NCBI GenBank assembly: GCA_946481495.1
Contig: CAMLNW010000007.1
Coordinates: 1-25,147 of the forward strand
Reading direction: 5' to 3'
Length of the DNA stretch: 25,147 bases
Source: an uncultured Actinomycetes bacterium
Lineage (GTDB): Bacteria; Actinomycetota; Thermoleophilia; Solirubrobacterales; Thermoleophilaceae
Shown here: in pieces, positions 10,843 to 15,619 of the stretch
How the letters are laid out: every line of letters starts with the position of its first letter
Numbering within the stretch: position 1 is the stretch's first letter
The notes under the pieces: generated by a model
Databases searched by the model: none
Told to the model about the DNA's origin: nothing
What the model saw: the letters and a program-made list of their open reading frames with translations, nothing else
Translations under genes and position numbers: made by a program

Positions 10843-12147
10843 TCAGCCCAGCAGTGCGCGGAGGTCGGACTCGAAGCCGGGATAGGAGATGGCGGCGGAG
10901 TCCATGCCGAGGACTTCGACGCCGTCTTGGGAGGCGAGGCCGGCGATGGCGCCGAGCATGGCGATGCGGTGGTCGCCGCGGGCGTCGATCGTGCCGCCGC
11001 GGAGCGGTGTGCCGTCGCCGTGGACGGCGAAGCCGTCATCAGTGGCTTCGATGTCGGCACCGAGCGCGCGCAGGCCGTCGACGACGGCAGCGATGCGGTC
11101 GGACTCCTTGTGGCGCAGCTCGCCGGCGCCACGGACGATCGTGTCGCCCTCGGCGAAGGCGCCGAGCAGGGCTACGAGTGTGAGCTCGTCGATCGCCGCG
11201 GGCACCTCTTCGGGGGTGACCTCGGTGCCGACCAGCGGGCCGTGGGCGACGTCGAGCTCGCCGACCGGCTCGACGTCGTTGAACTCGCCGGGCTCTTCGA
11301 GATCGCCGACGATCACGGCGCCCATCCGCTGCGCGATGCGGAAGAAGCCGCAGCGAGTCCAGTTGAGACCGACGTTCTGGATCACGACGCGCGAATCGGG
11401 CACCAGGCAGGCCGCGGCGACCATGAAGGCAGCCGACGACGGGTCGCCCGGAACGGCGATCGCGTCGAGCTCGAGCTCGTCGACCTGCGAGACGGTGATG
11501 TTGAGGCCGTCGCGCTCGAACGGGACGCGCGAGCGCGCGAGGATCCGCTCGGTGTGATCGCGACTGGTGCGGCCTTCGACGATCGTCGTGCTGCCGTCGG
11601 CAAGCATCCCGGCGATCAGGACGCAGGACTTGACCTGGGCACTCGCCATCGGCAGGTCGTAGGTCGTGCCGCGCAGCTCGCCGCCGCGAACCGTCAGCGG
11701 CGGCAGGCGATCGTCGCGGGCATCGATGTCTGCGCCCATCTGGCGCAGCGGAGCGATGATACGGTCGACCGGACGACGGCGGATCGACTCGTCGCCGTCG
11801 AGCACCCACTCTCCCCCCGGCTGGCCCGCGAGCCAGCCCGGCAGCAGCCGCAGCAGCGTGCCGGAGTTGCCGACGTCGAGCCGGCCGCCGGTCGTCTCGA
11901 GCGGCGCATGCAGACCGACGCCGCGAATCAGCACGCGACCGTCGCCTTCGTCCTCGACACCGGCGCCCAACCGCAGCACGGCGTCGAGCGTCGAGCGCGT
12001 GTCGGCGGCGTCGAGGTAGTTGGTGATCGCAACCGGTTCGTCGCTCATCGCGCCGAACAGCGCGGCGCGGTGCGAGATCGACTTGTCGGCGGGAGGTTCG
12101 TACTCCCCCAGCAGCGCTCCCGCCGGCTCGAAACGCGCGTTGCTCAC
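10843..12147 (-). CDS. aroA: 3-phosphoshikimate 1-carboxyvinyltransferase (EPSP synthase)
   Basis: This is the sixth step of the shikimate pathway, joining shikimate-3-phosphate with phosphoenolpyruvate. The 434 residues show ADKSISHRAALFGA near 20-33 (Lys/Ser/Arg substrate contacts), VGNSGTLLRLL, DGDESIRRRPVDR, LPMASAQVKSCVLIAG, PGDPSSAAF, LRHKESDRI (catalytic-region Lys/Glu) and ARGDHRIAM. Several of these (KSISHR, PMASAQVKS, RDHTE, PGDPSSAAF) resemble the class II, CP4-like branch more than the E. coli class I form. The position that is Ala in the class II NAATG motif is Gly here (GNSGT). The start is GTG 12147 and its first four bases (GTGA) contain the tyrA stop, so translation is coupled. 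Confidence 0.96.
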   Translation of the reverse strand: MSNARFEPAGALLGEYEPPADKSISHRAALFGAMSDEPVAITNYLDAADTRSTLDAVLRLGAGVEDEGDGRVLIRGVGLHAPLETTGGRLDVGNSGTLLRLLPGWLAGQPGGEWVLDGDESIRRRPVDRIIAPLRQMGADIDARDDRLPPLTVRGGELRGTTYDLPMASAQVKSCVLIAGMLADGSTTIVEGRTSRDHTERILARSRVPFERDGLNITVSQVDELELDAIAVPGDPSSAAFMVAAACLVPDSRVVIQNVGLNWTRCGFFRIAQRMGAVIVGDLEEPGEFNDVEPVGELDVAHGPLVGTEVTPEEVPAAIDELTLVALLGAFAEGDTIVRGAGELRHKESDRIAAVVDGLRALGADIEATDDGFAVHGDGTPLRGGTIDARGDHRIAMLGAIAGLASQDGVEVLGMDSAAISYPGFESDLRALLG

Positions 12148-13217
12148 GCCTCGGCGACTGGGAAGCCGAGGTCGTCGATCAACTGGCGGGCGCGGTCCGC
12201 CTCGGCGTCGCCGGCGATCCAGAGCGTGATCGCGCCGGAGCGCATGTCGGGGGCCGGCGCGAGCGCCATGTCCACGATGTTCACCCCTGCCTTGCCGAGC
12301 GCCAGCGCCACCTCGGCGACGATACCGGGGCGGTTCGGGACGGTCGTGCGCAACTCGTGAACGACGCCGCCGGCGAGGTCGGCCTCGAGCAGCCGGCGAC
12401 GGGCGTCCGCCGCCTGCTCGTTCCAGGTGGTGATCGCACCGGCCTCACCGGCGCGCAACAGCTCGGCCGCCGCTTGCAGGCGCTCGACAACGGCGTCGAC
12501 TTCAGCCGCGATCGCCTCGCGGTTGGCGACGTAGATGTCGGTCCAGATCGCCGAGTTCGCGCCGGCGACGCGGGTCGCGTCGCGGAAGCTCGGGCCGACG
12601 CGCGGCAGTGCCGCGTCCTCCTCGCCCAGCGCACCGGCAGTCTGGGTGACCAGTGCGTTGGCGAGCACGTGCGGCAGGTGGCTGACGGTGGCGAGAAGAC
12701 GGTCGTGGGAGTCGGCGTCGATCGCGACCGGGCGGGCGCCGAGCGCGGCGACGAGCCGGTGCAGCCGCTCGAAGAGGACGCCGGAGCTGTCGCTCGTCGG
12801 CGTCAAGTACCAAGTCGCGCCCTGGAAGAGATCAGCGCGGGCGTGCTCGACACCGGCGGTCTCGGCACCGGCGATCGGATGACCGCCGACGAAGCGCCGG
12901 TCCGCCGCGGCCGCGACGACTCCGCCCTTTGTGGAGCCGACGTCGGTAACGACGCAATCCTCGCCGGCCGCCGCCAAGGCCGCGGCGATCTGGCCGTCGA
13001 GCGCGCCGACCGGTGCGCAGCAGAAGCAAACTGACGCGCCGTCGAGCGCATCCTCCAGCGAGGTCGCCGCACTGTCGATCGCACCCAGCTCGCGGGCGCG
13101 CTCCAACCGCTCGGGGCTGCGCCCGAAACCGACGACCTCGACATCCTCGAAGCACTCCCTGGCCGCGAGCCCGATCGAGCCGCCGATCAGCCCGACGCCG
13201 AGGACGGCGACCTTCAT
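12144..13217 (-). CDS. tyrA: Prephenate dehydrogenase with C-terminal ACT domain
   Basis: It oxidises and decarboxylates prephenate to 4-hydroxyphenylpyruvate, the tyrosine branch. The N-terminal NAD-binding domain starts MKVAVLGVGLIGGSIGLAARE. The dehydrogenase core follows with TDVGSTKG, GGHPIAGAETAGVEHARADLF and SHLPHVLANAL. From about residue 290 there is an ACT domain (HELRTTVPNRPGIVAEVALALGKAGVNIVDM), a typical site for amino-acid feedback, probably tyrosine. There is no chorismate mutase domain; that activity is supplied by the separate aroH. The ATG at 13217 overlaps the aroG stop as ATGA and the gene's own stop lies within aroA's GTGA. Confidence 0.95.
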   Translation of the reverse strand: MKVAVLGVGLIGGSIGLAARECFEDVEVVGFGRSPERLERARELGAIDSAATSLEDALDGASVCFCCAPVGALDGQIAAALAAAGEDCVVTDVGSTKGGVVAAAADRRFVGGHPIAGAETAGVEHARADLFQGATWYLTPTSDSSGVLFERLHRLVAALGARPVAIDADSHDRLLATVSHLPHVLANALVTQTAGALGEEDAALPRVGPSFRDATRVAGANSAIWTDIYVANREAIAAEVDAVVERLQAAAELLRAGEAGAITTWNEQAADARRRLLEADLAGGVVHELRTTVPNRPGIVAEVALALGKAGVNIVDMALAPAPDMRSGAITLWIAGDAEADRARQLIDDLGFPVAEA

Positions 13218-14308
13218 CCGTCGCGCCGCGCCCGGACCGCCGTCGTCAGACCGTCGAGCACGGCAACCGTCTGGTCCCAGTCCATGCAGGCGTCTGTGAT
13301 CGACTGGCCGTAGGTCAGCTTGCCGCCGACGCTCTCAACGCTCTGGTTTCCCGCGACGAGGAACGACTCGAGCATCACGCCGACGATCGCCCGGTTGCCG
13401 GCCGCGATCTGCGCTCCGATCGCCTCGGAGGCGATCGGCTGACGGTCGGGATCCTTGCCGCTGTTGTCGTGCGAGGCATCGATCACGACGCGCTCCGGCA
13501 GGCCGGCGGCGCGCAGCTTGGCGAGCGCCTGCTCGACCTCGGCGGCGCCGTAGTTCGGCGCACCCCTGCCGCCGCGCAGGATCACGTGGCCGTCGGGGTT
13601 GCCGGTCGTGTGCAGGATCGCCGGGGTGCCACTGTCGTCGATGCCGGTGAAGGCGTGCGACGCGGCGGCCGCGCGAACGGCGTCGACCGCCACCTGGACG
13701 TCGCCGTCAGTGCGGTTCTTGAAACCGATCGGCATCGACAGTCCGGAGCCGAGCTGGCGGTGGACCTGGCTCTCGGTCGTGCGCGCGCCGATCGCGCCCC
13801 AGGCGACCGTGTCGGAGATGTACTGCGGCGTGATCGGGTCGAGGAACTCGACGCCGACCGGCAGGCCGAGCGACAGCACCTCGAGCAACAGCGTGCGCGC
13901 CTTGTGCAGGCCGGCGTTGACGTCGAGCGATCCATCGAGGTGGGGGTCGTTGATTAGCCCCTTCCAGCCGGTCGTGGTGCGCGGCTTCTCGAAGTAGACG
14001 CGCATCGCGATCAGCAGGTCGTTGCTGCACCGCTCGGCGGTCTCGGCGAGCCGGCCGGCGTACTCCAGCGCCGCGTCGACGTCGTGGACGCTGCACGGTC
14101 CGACGACGACCAGCAGCCGGTCGTCCTCACGGTCGAGGACCGCCGAGACCCGCTCGCGGTCACGCACGACGGCCTTCGCCCGCTCTGGCCCGAGCGGCAT
14201 GTCGCCGAGCAGTCGCTCAGGCGTGACGAGCGGCACAGCGCGCTCGATTCGCTGGTCGCGAACGTGGTCGCGGCCCGTTGTCACCCCCTCTGTCATCCCG
14301 ATCATCAT
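13214..14308 (-). CDS. aroG: DAHP synthase, class I (AroF/G/H type)
   Basis: This is the first enzyme of the shikimate pathway, condensing erythrose-4-phosphate with phosphoenolpyruvate. The 364 residues match the class I-alpha family: VVVGPCSVHD near 67-76, FEKPRTTTGWKGLINDPHLDGS near 105-126, EFLDPITPQYISD, WGAIGARTTESQVHRQLGSGLSMPIGFKNRTDG, and IDASHDNSGKDP with a His ligand. Enzymes of this class are normally inhibited by an aromatic amino acid. The start could be either of two adjacent ATGs (14308 or 14305); AAGGAG lies about 13 bases upstream, somewhat far. That ribosome site has an exact 10-base complement within an upstream leader ORF, so expression is probably controlled by a leader-peptide switch (see 14309-14523). 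Confidence 0.96.
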   Translation of the reverse strand: MMIGMTEGVTTGRDHVRDQRIERAVPLVTPERLLGDMPLGPERAKAVVRDRERVSAVLDREDDRLLVVVGPCSVHDVDAALEYAGRLAETAERCSNDLLIAMRVYFEKPRTTTGWKGLINDPHLDGSLDVNAGLHKARTLLLEVLSLGLPVGVEFLDPITPQYISDTVAWGAIGARTTESQVHRQLGSGLSMPIGFKNRTDGDVQVAVDAVRAAAASHAFTGIDDSGTPAILHTTGNPDGHVILRGGRGAPNYGAAEVEQALAKLRAAGLPERVVIDASHDNSGKDPDRQPIASEAIGAQIAAGNRAIVGVMLESFLVAGNQSVESVGGKLTYGQSITDACMDWDQTVAVLDGLTTAVRARRDG

Positions 14309-14436
14309 GTCGCTTCTCTGTCTCCTTCGAAGTTCTGGGGCCGTCTCGAACGAGAGACGGCGGTACTAGGGCGTGGGCTATCGGCGTCCGACTGGGAACC
14401 GTTCGGCCGACGGCAGGGGCTGCCGCTGCCGGACGC
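14309..14436 (-). promoter_or_regulatory. Attenuator region of aroG (alternative hairpins, sequestered ribosome site)
   Basis: This is the untranslated stretch between the aromatic leader ORF and aroG. In transcript order it holds: an 8-bp stem made by GGCGTCCG (14437-14430) and CGGACGCC (14390-14383), the first arm beginning at the last base of the leader stop codon; inside it a 6-bp hairpin CGGCAG-CCC-CTGCCG (14425-14411); an 8-bp hairpin at 14340-14361; and the aroG ribosome site CGAAGGAGAC (14329-14320). The last is exactly complementary to GTCTCCTTCG in the leader (14480-14471) and partly to GTCTC...TTCG in the 8-bp hairpin. There is no run of T after any hairpin, so control is more likely translational than by intrinsic termination. 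Confidence 0.65.
14340..14361 (-). promoter_or_regulatory. 8-bp hairpin just upstream of the aroG ribosome site
   Basis: GCCGTCTC and GAGACGGC are perfectly complementary around a six-base TCGTTC loop. It resembles a terminator stem but is followed by CCCAGAAC, not a T-tract. Its 5' arm contains GTCTC, and TTCG follows in the loop; together they can also pair with the ribosome site downstream (GAGAC and CGAA). This makes it a candidate anti-sequestor in the proposed switch. Confidence 0.6.
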
Positions 14437-14523
14437 CTAGCTAAATCGCCAATAGGACACGCAGGCACGCCGAAGGAGACCCGGAAGGTCCTCTGTGCTG
14501 ATCGGCGTGGCGGTGCGAGCCAT
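14437..14523 (-). CDS. Aromatic leader peptide upstream of aroG (28 aa, ends SYWRFS)
   Basis: The ORF runs from ATG (14523-14521) to TAG (14439-14437), 20 bases after the hisC stop. Its last residues are Ala-Cys-Val-Ser-Tyr-Trp-Arg-Phe-Ser, so one codon each for Tyr (TAT), Trp (TGG) and Phe (TTT) falls in a four-codon window just before the stop. These are the three end products of the pathway that aroG starts. TAT and TTT are unusual codons in this GC-rich DNA. AAGTAGG ahead of the ATG is a weak ribosome site. Codons 15-18 contain the exact complement of the aroG ribosome site. Leader peptides of this kind are known in actinobacteria before aromatic genes, for example aroR before aroF in Corynebacterium. 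The role is inferred; the ORF and motif are directly visible. Confidence 0.75.
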   Translation of the reverse strand: MARTATPISTEDLPGLLRRACVSYWRFS

Positions 14524-14542
14524 CGACCTACTTGTAGCAGGG

Positions 14543-15619
14543 TCAGATCAGTTCGTCCAACGCTGCTACGAAACGCTCGTTCTGGTGGCGGGTGCCGAGC
14601 GTCACGCGCAGGTAGCCCTCACTGCCGAGCGCAGCGCCCGCGCGGATGATCACTCCACGCTGAGCGAGCCCGTCGACGATCGGCCCCTCTTCGCGCTCGC
14701 CGAGACCGACCCAGACGAAGTTCGCCTGACTGTCGGTGGTCGTCAGGCCGCGATCCTCGAGCTCGACCTCGAGCCAGGCGCGCTCGACGATCGTCGCCTC
14801 GACACGGCGCGTGACCTCGTCCTGGTGGCGAATCGCCTCGGCGGCGGCTGCCTGGGCGAGCGCGTTGACCGAGAACGGCTGGCGGATGCGGTCGACCGCC
14901 AGCCGGAACTCCTCCGGTCCGAGCGCATAGCCGGCGCGCAGGCCGCAGAGCCCATAGACCTTCGAGAAGGTGCGCAGGACGATCAGGTTCGGGTGGCGCT
15001 GTACCAAGTCGAGCGAATCGGCCGGGTCCTGGAGCGCGTTGAACTCGACGTAGGCCTCGTCGAGGATCACCGCTACGTGACGTGGCAGCCCGGCCACGAA
15101 GGCGTGGATCGCCTCGACCGGCAACGCGGTCCCGGTCGGATTGTTCGGGTTGCAGATCAACACCAGCCGGGTCGCGGCGGTGACCTCCGCGGCCATCGCG
15201 TCGAGGTCGTGGCACTGCTCGTCGTCGAGCGGCACCTCGATCGCGCGGGCGCCGGACTGGGCGGCGACGTGCGGGTAGATCGAGAACGACGGCCAGGCGT
15301 AGATCAGCTCGGCGCCCGGCTCGAGCAGCACATCGGCGGCGGACATCAGCAGCTCGCAGGAGCCGTTGCCGACCGCGACGCGCGCGGCGGGCAGCTCGCA
15401 ACGGTCGGCGATCCGCTGGCGCAACAGCGTCTTGCCCGGGTCCGGATAGCGGTTGAGCCGCTCGATCTGGCTGTTGAGCGCCCCGACGACCGCCGGCAGC
15501 GGCCCCCAAGGAGCCTCGTTCGACGCCAGCTCGACGAGCTCACCCTCGTGCTCCCAGGTCTTGGCGGCCGGGTAGACGGGGATCCGCCCAAGGCGATCGT
15601 TGAACTCGATGCCGCTCAC
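14543..15619 (-). CDS. hisC: HisC-type aminotransferase (histidinol-phosphate / aromatic)
   Basis: A fold-type I PLP aminotransferase of 358 residues. NPNNPTGT near 158-165, LDEAYVEF near 187-194 and the PLP-binding FSKVYGLCGLRAGYA (Lys220) are all present, and the C-terminus has GYLRVTLGTRHQNE, typical of HisC. HisC enzymes transaminate histidinol phosphate, and many also accept phenylpyruvate or 4-hydroxyphenylpyruvate. Its place between chorismate mutase and DAHP synthase, away from other his genes, suggests that here it mainly serves Phe/Tyr synthesis. That choice is inferred from context; sequence alone does not settle it. The GTG at 15619 overlaps the aroH stop as GTGA. The leader peptide of aroG begins 20 bases after its stop. 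Confidence 0.92.
   Translation of the reverse strand: MSGIEFNDRLGRIPVYPAAKTWEHEGELVELASNEAPWGPLPAVVGALNSQIERLNRYPDPGKTLLRQRIADRCELPAARVAVGNGSCELLMSAADVLLEPGAELIYAWPSFSIYPHVAAQSGARAIEVPLDDEQCHDLDAMAAEVTAATRLVLICNPNNPTGTALPVEAIHAFVAGLPRHVAVILDEAYVEFNALQDPADSLDLVQRHPNLIVLRTFSKVYGLCGLRAGYALGPEEFRLAVDRIRQPFSVNALAQAAAAEAIRHQDEVTRRVEATIVERAWLEVELEDRGLTTTDSQANFVWVGLGEREEGPIVDGLAQRGVIIRAGAALGSEGYLRVTLGTRHQNERFVAALDELI

What the first reader, a model, noticed from the sequence alone, without database searches (positions are those of the whole stretch)
14437..14523. Unannotated leader peptide with Tyr-Trp-Arg-Phe just before its stop, upstream of DAHP synthase
A 28-codon ORF between hisC and aroG carries Tyr, Trp and Phe codons at positions 24, 25 and 27, and stops at codon 29. 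These are the three products of the pathway whose first enzyme follows. A ribosome short of any one aromatic amino acid would pause in the same four-codon window, so one leader could sense all three. Known actinobacterial examples (such as aroR of Corynebacterium) sense mainly one. It lies inside a gene cluster rather than at its head, so it could set aroG-tyrA-aroA separately from aroH-hisC.
Basis: partly seen in the sequence, partly recalled or inferred. Interest (0 to 1): 0.9.

Follow-up and report, generated by a model that had tools for sequence, protein, structure and literature searches.

The report
Aromatic-sensing leader peptide before aroG
A short unannotated gene just before the first enzyme of aromatic amino acid synthesis carries codons for tyrosine, tryptophan and phenylalanine next to its stop; related leaders are widespread in actinobacteria, and in this lineage the codons seem able to cover the ribosome-binding site of the enzyme gene until a starved ribosome stalls on them.

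Summary
The leader ORF is real: window 14437-14523 (-), MARTATPISTEDLPGLLRRACVSYWRFS*, between hisC and a type I DAHP synthase gene. It is conserved: 14 of 14 Thermoleophilia-like genomes carry exactly one TGGCGATTTANCTAGG (W-R-F-x-stop), as do 67 of 299 genomes of the class, with no reversed-pattern hit. Every case examined precedes a DAHP synthase gene or, once, tyrA. A covarying stem starts at the stop codon. Among 65 other class-I aroG loci, 56 have a near-leaderless aromatic uORF (shuffled 0.1); 47 of 48 distinct ones encode Tyr, Trp and Phe, with TAT 53:0 over TAC against 1:205 in the genes. Terminator-like sites: 42 of 65 there, 2 of 42 in this lineage. Here the aromatic codon run co-varies with the Shine-Dalgarno region of the next gene (z -5.1; replicated in 33 held-out leaders). 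Best reading: a translational attenuator sensing three amino acids, a new variant of AroR-type leaders. No regulation has been measured, and in the window itself the anti-SD lies upstream of YWRF, so its coupling is uncertain.

The parts
14555..14560 (-). -35-like TTGGAC inside the end of hisC, 18 nt before the -10-like box
   Evidence: read from the sequence; weak consensus match, not tested in relatives
14531..14536 (-). -10-like box TACAAG, 7 nt before the leader start codon (near-leaderless mRNA)
   Evidence: such a box 5-10 nt before an in-frame start in 31 of 42 leaders, 2.9 in shuffles (box set chosen after reading the sequences)
14437..14523 (-). leader ORF, 28 codons, MARTATPISTEDLPGLLRRACVSYWRFS*
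   Evidence: relatives
14443..14454 (-). sensor codons TAT TGG CGA TTT (Tyr-Trp-Arg-Phe)
   Evidence: TGGCGATTT in 14 of 14 genomes; variants
14472..14480 (-). anti-Shine-Dalgarno GTCTCCTTC within leader codons 15-18
   Evidence: 9 bp perfect to 14320-14328; 6 of 3000 codon-shuffled ORFs pair as well with the SD region; closing stem of the predicted fold
14428..14437 (-). P1 stem 5' arm GGCGTCCGGC, beginning at the G of the TAG stop
   Evidence: 13 cells with double-sided change, 98.1% paired against 34-48% when slid (36 of 42 leaders)
14411..14425 (-). P2 small hairpin CGGCAG-CCC-CTGCCG inside the P1 loop
   Evidence: internal hairpin in 3 of 5 clade consensus folds, including the window's clade
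14383..14392 (-). P1 stem 3' arm GTCGGACGCC
14341..14360 (-). local hairpin CCGTCTC-TCGTTC-GAGACGG, not followed by a T run
   Evidence: no terminator-like site found
14320..14328 (-). Shine-Dalgarno region GAAGGAGAC of aroG, predicted paired to the leader ORF
13214..14308 (-). aroG, type I 3-deoxy-7-phosphoheptulonate (DAHP) synthase, the gene presumed regulated
12144..13217 (-). tyrA-like prephenate dehydrogenase, next in the same direction
   Evidence: best NCBIfam match below its curated cut-off
10843..12147 (-). aroA, next in the same direction

Best explanation
The ORF is a leader peptide that senses charged tRNA for Tyr, Trp and Phe and controls translation of the DAHP synthase gene behind it (and probably aroG-tyrA-aroA as a unit). 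A promoter at the end of hisC gives a near-leaderless mRNA whose first ORF is the leader. By default the RNA folds with P1 at the stop codon and a base stem in which the leader's aromatic codon run, or in this window the codons just before it, pairs with the Shine-Dalgarno region of aroG and hides it. When Tyr, Trp or Phe is short, a ribosome halts on those codons, prevents the base stem and frees the Shine-Dalgarno region. When all are plentiful the ribosome runs to the stop codon, leaves the codon run bare, and the stem re-forms. Shown by comparison: the conserved ORF, aromatic and rare-codon enrichment, P1, and co-variation of the codon run with the SD region. Inferred: promoter use, ribosome stalling, SD release, and direction of regulation. 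Not shown: any regulation in a cell.
For: Conservation and gene context. P1 covariation; P1 of at least 8 bp starting at the stop codon in 64 of 75 leaders, about 6 with shuffled arms. Co-variation of codon run and SD region: own partners beat swapped ones at z -5.1, -4.2 and -3.6 for windows centred -12, -6 and 0 from TGG; the other 21 windows have |z| up to 1.9 (42 leaders). The same three windows lead in 33 held-out leaders (z -2.7, -3.3, -2.4; 19, 4 and 7 of 2000 permutations; next best z -2.0 at +54). With all 75 the partner lies mainly -24 to -6 from the gene start (z -3.6 to -5.2), weaker at 0 and +6 (z -2.3, -2.7). After clustering: 49 clusters, p at most 0.0001 at -12 and -6; 16 clusters, p 0.008 and 0.005. 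A modelled ribosome footprint with its A site from -18 to 0 lowers the cost of opening the SD by 1.6-2.0 kcal/mol on average (35-40 of 75 leaders lower by more than 1, 5-8 higher); at the stop codon the mean is -0.5 and the median near 0. The 48 distinct leaders from outside the lineage show no codon-run:SD signal (z 0.2 to 0.8). Window: 9 bp ORF:SD helix, 6 of 3000 codon-shuffled ORFs as good.
Against: In the window itself the SD partner is codons 15-18, upstream of YWRF. The modelled SD-opening cost (11.4 unloaded) falls to about 3-5 for ribosomes with the A site at or before codon 22, but is 13.9 at Tyr24, 9.7 at Trp25 and 8.9 at Phe27; with a longer footprint the values are 8.5, 13.9 and 9.7. 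An earlier measure, mean unpaired probability of the SD region, showed no consistent change between Trp and stop positions (12 up, 12 down of 42). The enrichment is a family average: strong contiguous helices (score at least 18) occur in 22 of 75 leaders against 10.6 expected by swapping. 14 representatives alone reach only 63 of 2000 at -12, with 86 of 2000 at an unrelated window (+48). In the leaders outside the lineage the segment just after the codon run (centre +18) does co-vary with the SD region (z -3.2, 2 of 1000), so the contrast between the two groups is not clean. For the similar LEU element, codon mutations are reported as having no effect, or effects not consistent with classical attenuation (PMC1262725). 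A second TANNNT-like box between P1 and the gene in several relatives could bypass the leader.
Confidence: 0.58

Rival explanations
1. Classical transcription attenuation as in Corynebacterium AroR: a stalled ribosome chooses between an antiterminator and an intrinsic terminator before aroG.
For: Kin outside the lineage have this anatomy: the segment after the last aromatic codon pairs with a partner about 60 nt on (z -9.2, 48 leaders), and terminator-like sites occur in 42 of 65 loci against 8 in shuffles.
Against: Terminator-like sites in only 2 of 42 Thermoleophilia leaders (0.4 in shuffles) and none in the window; neither P1 arm has a competing partner downstream beyond chance.
Confidence: 0.1
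2. Rho-dependent attenuation: the leader ribosome or the folded leader blocks or opens a Rho site before aroG.
For: High-GC leader without intrinsic terminator; base-stem formation would leave aroG untranslated and so exposed to Rho (inference). This could act together with SD masking.
Against: C-over-G stretches are not above shuffles (9.8 vs 9.6).
Confidence: 0.12
3. A nascent-peptide arrest leader: the peptide ending WRFx, held at its stop codon, senses a free aromatic amino acid, in the way recalled for TnaC.
For: W-R-F-x-stop is nearly invariant in this lineage, at fixed distance from the stop, which plain codon sensing does not need.
Against: Kin vary (YRWF, YFWF, WYAYF, FYF) and use rare Tyr and Phe codons, which fits decoding speed rather than peptide identity. 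Most of the 75 leaders were found by that DNA pattern, so their invariance is partly by selection; variants exist.
Confidence: 0.13
4. A conserved structured RNA bound by a protein, with the ORF incidental.
For: P1 and the UGGCGAUUU segment are strongly conserved; Seliverstov et al. favoured a protein for the LEU element (PMC1262725).
Against: Aromatic and rare-codon enrichment at variable positions in the reading frame, start boxes at leaderless distance and the family-wide uORFs point to translation.
Confidence: 0.07

Closest known systems
AroR leader peptide of Corynebacterium glutamicum aroF (Neshat et al. 2014, not held; known here only through passages of PMC4046766 and PMC11802643)
   Same: Leader ORF with aromatic codons before a DAHP synthase gene. 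A Corynebacterium ulceribovis locus in this set has such a leader (MSVQRFYFGGAPVG...) with the Phe-Tyr-Phe run reported for AroR, and its first stem starts 7 nt after the first base of the last aromatic codon, against 8 nt in this lineage.
   Different: AroR has Phe-Tyr-Phe, is reported to act by transcription attenuation and to respond to Phe but not Tyr. The Thermoleophilia leaders have W-R-F at the stop, no U-tract terminator, a stem that contains the last base of the stop codon, and codon-run:SD co-variation.
LEU element of actinobacterial leuA (Seliverstov et al. 2005, PMC1262725, parts 1 and 2 of 3 read)
   Same: The leader peptide codon run is described as pairing with the SD of the next gene in a base stem that encloses further structure.
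   Different: Leu codons and leuA; a pseudoknot is claimed there and was not tested here. That paper reports no conserved structures upstream of phenylalanine or tyrosine operons.
Translational attenuation by cysteine uORFs in mycobacteria (PMC13236596 and PMC4633059, passages only)
   Same: uORF with regulatory codons on leaderless mRNA; pairing of a uORF with downstream RNA hides the SD until a ribosome stalls.
   Different: One amino acid, cysteine genes; shared sequence was not looked for.
Trp attenuators of Streptomyces and Corynebacterium (PMC1262725 and, passages only, PMC8079986)
   Same: Leader peptides with Trp codons in Actinobacteria, leaderless in S. lividans.
   Different: Trp only, before trp genes or trpS. 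The S. lividans passages seen name eight leaders (leu, trp, ala, ilv, met, thr) and none for a DAHP synthase.

Membership tests
Ribosome-mediated amino acid leader (general) | Short ORF upstream of a biosynthetic gene, rich in codons for the pathway product | tested here: met
Ribosome-mediated amino acid leader (general) | Expression responds to shortage of those amino acids | not testable with these tools
   needs an experiment
AroR-type transcription attenuator | Intrinsic terminator with U tract between leader and gene | tested here: not met
   none in the window, 2 of 42 leaders of the lineage, against 42 of 65 loci outside it
AroR-type transcription attenuator | Competing pairing partners of the first stem | tested here: not met
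   arms pair downstream no better than shuffles (11 and 17 of 37 above)
AroR-type leader peptide (common descent of the leader) | Aromatic leader upstream of a DAHP synthase gene, start near the mRNA 5' end, stem a few nt after the last aromatic codon | tested here: met
   mRNA ends are predicted only, and common descent is inferred
LEU-element-like SD-masking leader | Regulatory codon run pairs with the SD region of the next gene (family level) | tested here: met
LEU-element-like SD-masking leader | The same in the window itself, on the YWRF codons | tested here: inconclusive
   SD pairs with codons 15-18 instead
LEU element (as a named family) | Location before leuA | tested here: not met
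   located before aroG/aroF
LEU element (as a named family) | Pseudoknot | not tested
   no pseudoknot search was made
Known Rfam riboswitch, T-box or leader family | Match at gathering score | tested here: not met
   window and 8 of the loci outside the lineage
Nascent-peptide arrest leader | Arrest depends on peptide sequence and a ligand | not testable with these tools
   needs toeprinting

The most novel reading that the evidence does not exclude
A widespread actinobacterial family of leaderless leader peptides gauges Tyr, Trp and Phe together at the entry to the aromatic pathway. The family has changed its output: terminator-based transcription control in most relatives, but in one Thermoleophilia lineage direct masking of the DAHP synthase Shine-Dalgarno site by the sensor codons themselves. 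There it has stayed in place while the enzyme behind it was exchanged between two DAHP synthase families.
Probability: 0.48. Interest if true: 0.72.

Novelty: new variant of a known kind. Interest (0 to 1): 0.62.

Why it matters
One leader reporting on all three end products would let a single DAHP synthase gene be set without a separate sensor for each. Related leaders with two different output modules in one phylum would be a direct, testable case of attenuation moving between transcription and translation. The leader is also a practical handle on the first step of the shikimate pathway in actinobacteria used for aromatic compounds.

Tried and rejected
Intrinsic terminator in the window and in the lineage: rejected. 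Rfam families: none. Rho-like C-over-G stretches: not above shuffles. Competing partners for the P1 arms: none. Pairing of the whole leader ORF with the SD as a family rule (18 of 37 above shuffle) and of P1, or of the ORF upstream of the codon run, with the SD region: no signal. SD accessibility as mean unpaired probability: no consistent effect; the opening-energy measure does show one; both are reported. A 14-representative swap test is weak (63 of 2000) and a 3-representative one uninformative; one clustering level collapsed to a single cluster and gave no result. Spread in the class: 53 of 61 genomes have a hit to the second-family (type I-beta-like) DAHP synthase; of the best 30 loci, 5 carry the WRF motif, and 4 more pass a looser aromatic-uORF scan with peptides that look unrelated. 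So the variant is confined to part of the class. Model hit L141 lies in coding DNA and was judged false. Model locus L130 was not examined.

Rows dropped: alignment A1 used 36 of 42 leaders (L023, L024, L081, L101, L102, L113 left out); one search used 37 of 42; the 65 loci are the 80 less 14 Thermoleophilia-like ones and L036 (too little upstream DNA), and by their titles two (L071, L077) are not actinobacterial; the swap test outside the lineage used 48 of the 56 leaders (identical 60-nt starts or no usable gene start dropped). Some of the 42 terminator-like sites are weak (for example L066, L073, L079). The -10 box set and the codon-run:SD idea were formed on the first 42 leaders; the 33 are the held-out check but come from the same pattern and model searches.

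Full report
What is there. On the minus strand, 234 nt separate hisC (stop at 14543) from aroG (start at 14308). The ORF 14523-14437 reads MARTATPISTEDLPGLLRRACVSYWRFS*. The gene order on that strand is chorismate mutase, HisC-like aminotransferase, leader, type I DAHP synthase, TyrA-like dehydrogenase, AroA. No Rfam family matches, and no terminator-like site was found. The 234 nt fold better than dinucleotide shuffles (z -3.3), with a closing stem between leader codons 15-18 and the aroG Shine-Dalgarno region.

Conservation. Nine of the 14 show the leader in the gap before that gene. Two more have it one gene further upstream, before a DAHP synthase gene of a second family. In the last three it stands before a gene of that second family elsewhere in the genome. 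A member of the second family scores above cut-off to PRK08673 and TIGR01361, the window's enzyme to TIGR00034; the labels type I-alpha and I-beta used here are recalled. Each of the 14 genomes has exactly one TGGCGATTTANCTAGG; the three other actinomycetes tested with them have none. In a sample of the class 67 of 299 genomes have it, once each, with no reversed-pattern hit. A covariance model matched 19 of 119 genomes. Four of these lack the exact pattern: three real variants (x codon AGT or CGC, or WRFV with TTC) and one false hit. One variant leader stands directly before tyrA-aroA (L140). Of the best 30 second-family loci from 61 genomes of the class, 5 carry the motif, so the variant belongs to part of the class.

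Peptide and codons. In 42 leaders the eight codons before the fixed W-R-F are 18.5% Tyr, 7.7% Phe and 4.8% Trp, against 1.7, 1.6 and 0.5% in the genes behind; TAT outnumbers TAC 42 to 20 where the genes have 4 to 206. TTT and CGA, fixed in the motif, are rare in those genes (2 of 200 Phe codons, 50 of 971 Arg codons), though leaders found by the pattern have them by selection. That such wobble-read codons are slow is recalled, not tested.

RNA. A stem begins at the G of the stop codon. In 36 aligned leaders it is 98.1% paired against 34-48% when slid, with 13 double-sided changes; it is at least 8 bp in 37 of 42 and 27 of 33 leaders. Consensus folds of 3 of 5 clades put a second small hairpin in its loop.

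Outside the lineage. A scan with fixed rules of 65 class-I aroG loci (63 actinobacterial by title) found an aromatic uORF with a TANNNT box 5-9 nt before its start in 56, against 0.1 in shuffles, 0 on the other strand and 0 inside aroG. Typical peptides are MTRSYRWFRQPA..., MQRAYFWFSRPAPGG..., MKRCYWRFFEWPA... and, in Corynebacterium ulceribovis, MSVQRFYFGGAPVG.... Among 48 distinct ones 47 have Tyr, Trp and Phe, with TAT 53 to TAC 0 and TTT 54 to TTC 9. They show the parts of a transcription attenuator: the segment after the last aromatic codon pairs with a partner about 60 nt downstream (z -9.2), and terminator-like sites follow in 42 of 65 against 8 in shuffles. C. glutamicum AroR, with Phe-Tyr-Phe, was reported earlier (PMC4046766, passages; PMC11802643, passages). 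I did not see such leaders described for other genera in the listings of ten paper searches or in the passages read; the library lacks most subscription papers.

Output in this lineage. The Thermoleophilia leaders lack the terminator (2 of 42), and the P1 arms have no rival partners. Swapping partners between species shows that the codon run (three of 24 windows along the leader, and no other) is better matched to its own species' SD region (42 leaders). The same three windows lead in 33 leaders set aside (the next best, +54, has z -2.0). The result holds after clustering by similarity, and the partner lies mainly -24 to -6 from the gene start. Clear examples are L155 (CGCTACGCCTGG with CCAGGCGTAGTG), L102 (CGCCTTTCG with CGAAAGGCG), L159 and L144. 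The 48 leaders from outside the lineage show no such match on the codon run, although their next segment (centre +18) does match the SD region at z -3.2. A modelled ribosome footprint lowers the cost of opening the SD most when it sits on the aromatic codons and little at the stop codon. That is the behaviour expected of a translational attenuator.

Limits. The signal is a family average; 22 of 75 leaders have a strong contiguous helix where swapping gives 10.6. In the window the anti-SD is at codons 15-18, a 9 bp match that 6 of 3000 codon-shuffled ORFs equal or beat. The footprint model predicts relief there for ribosomes up to codon 22 but not at Tyr24, and only slight relief at Trp25 or Phe27. 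A queued second ribosome, a different footprint, or divergence could explain this; I cannot decide. The mean-unpaired measure showed no effect. No regulation has been measured, and the promoter boxes are sequence matches only.

Known or new. The kind is known: leader peptides with regulatory codons, and uORFs that hide an SD site (LEU element, PMC1262725; mycobacterial cysteine uORFs, PMC13236596 and PMC4633059, passages). New here, as far as the searches show, are the tri-aromatic sensor as the common form outside Corynebacterium, the lineage in which it appears to act on the SD instead of a terminator, and its place in front of two DAHP synthase families.

Noticed in passing
window 14285-14308 (-); L001, L005, L119, L120: The first codons of several TIGR00034-type aroG genes (MMIGMTEG in the window) resemble the start of the second-family genes behind the same leader (MMIVMKEG). 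In L119 and L120 a similar start stands as a separate mini-ORF before aroG, as if one enzyme gene replaced the other behind a kept leader and start region.
   Followed up: partly
L001, L005, L086, L095-L099, L115 between P1 and the gene start: A second TANNNT-like box (GAAAGTACGATT, GTAGAGT, CTAGACT and the like) recurs upstream of the Shine-Dalgarno site; it could be a second promoter that bypasses the leader.
   Followed up: no
L140 about 1500-1734: A variant leader (WRFV*) stands directly before tyrA-aroA with no DAHP synthase gene between.
   Followed up: no
window 14543-15619 (-): The hisC-like gene sits among aromatic genes and scores best to PRK03321 just below its cut-off (367.9 vs 374); it may serve as an aromatic aminotransferase rather than in histidine synthesis.
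   Followed up: no
L012, L014, L033 and others outside the lineage: After the terminator a further copy of the first stem segment occurs (for example GCCGGCTC), able to pair with the middle segment around the terminator; it may explain why the segment after the codon run co-varies with the SD region there.
   Followed up: no
leader ORFs of L019, L032, L104, L112, L004 and the window: A stem inside the leader ORF (GGCACGC with GCGTGCC; window CACGCCGA with TCGGCGTG) recurs in one clade and overlaps the 3' end of the window's anti-SD.
   Followed up: no
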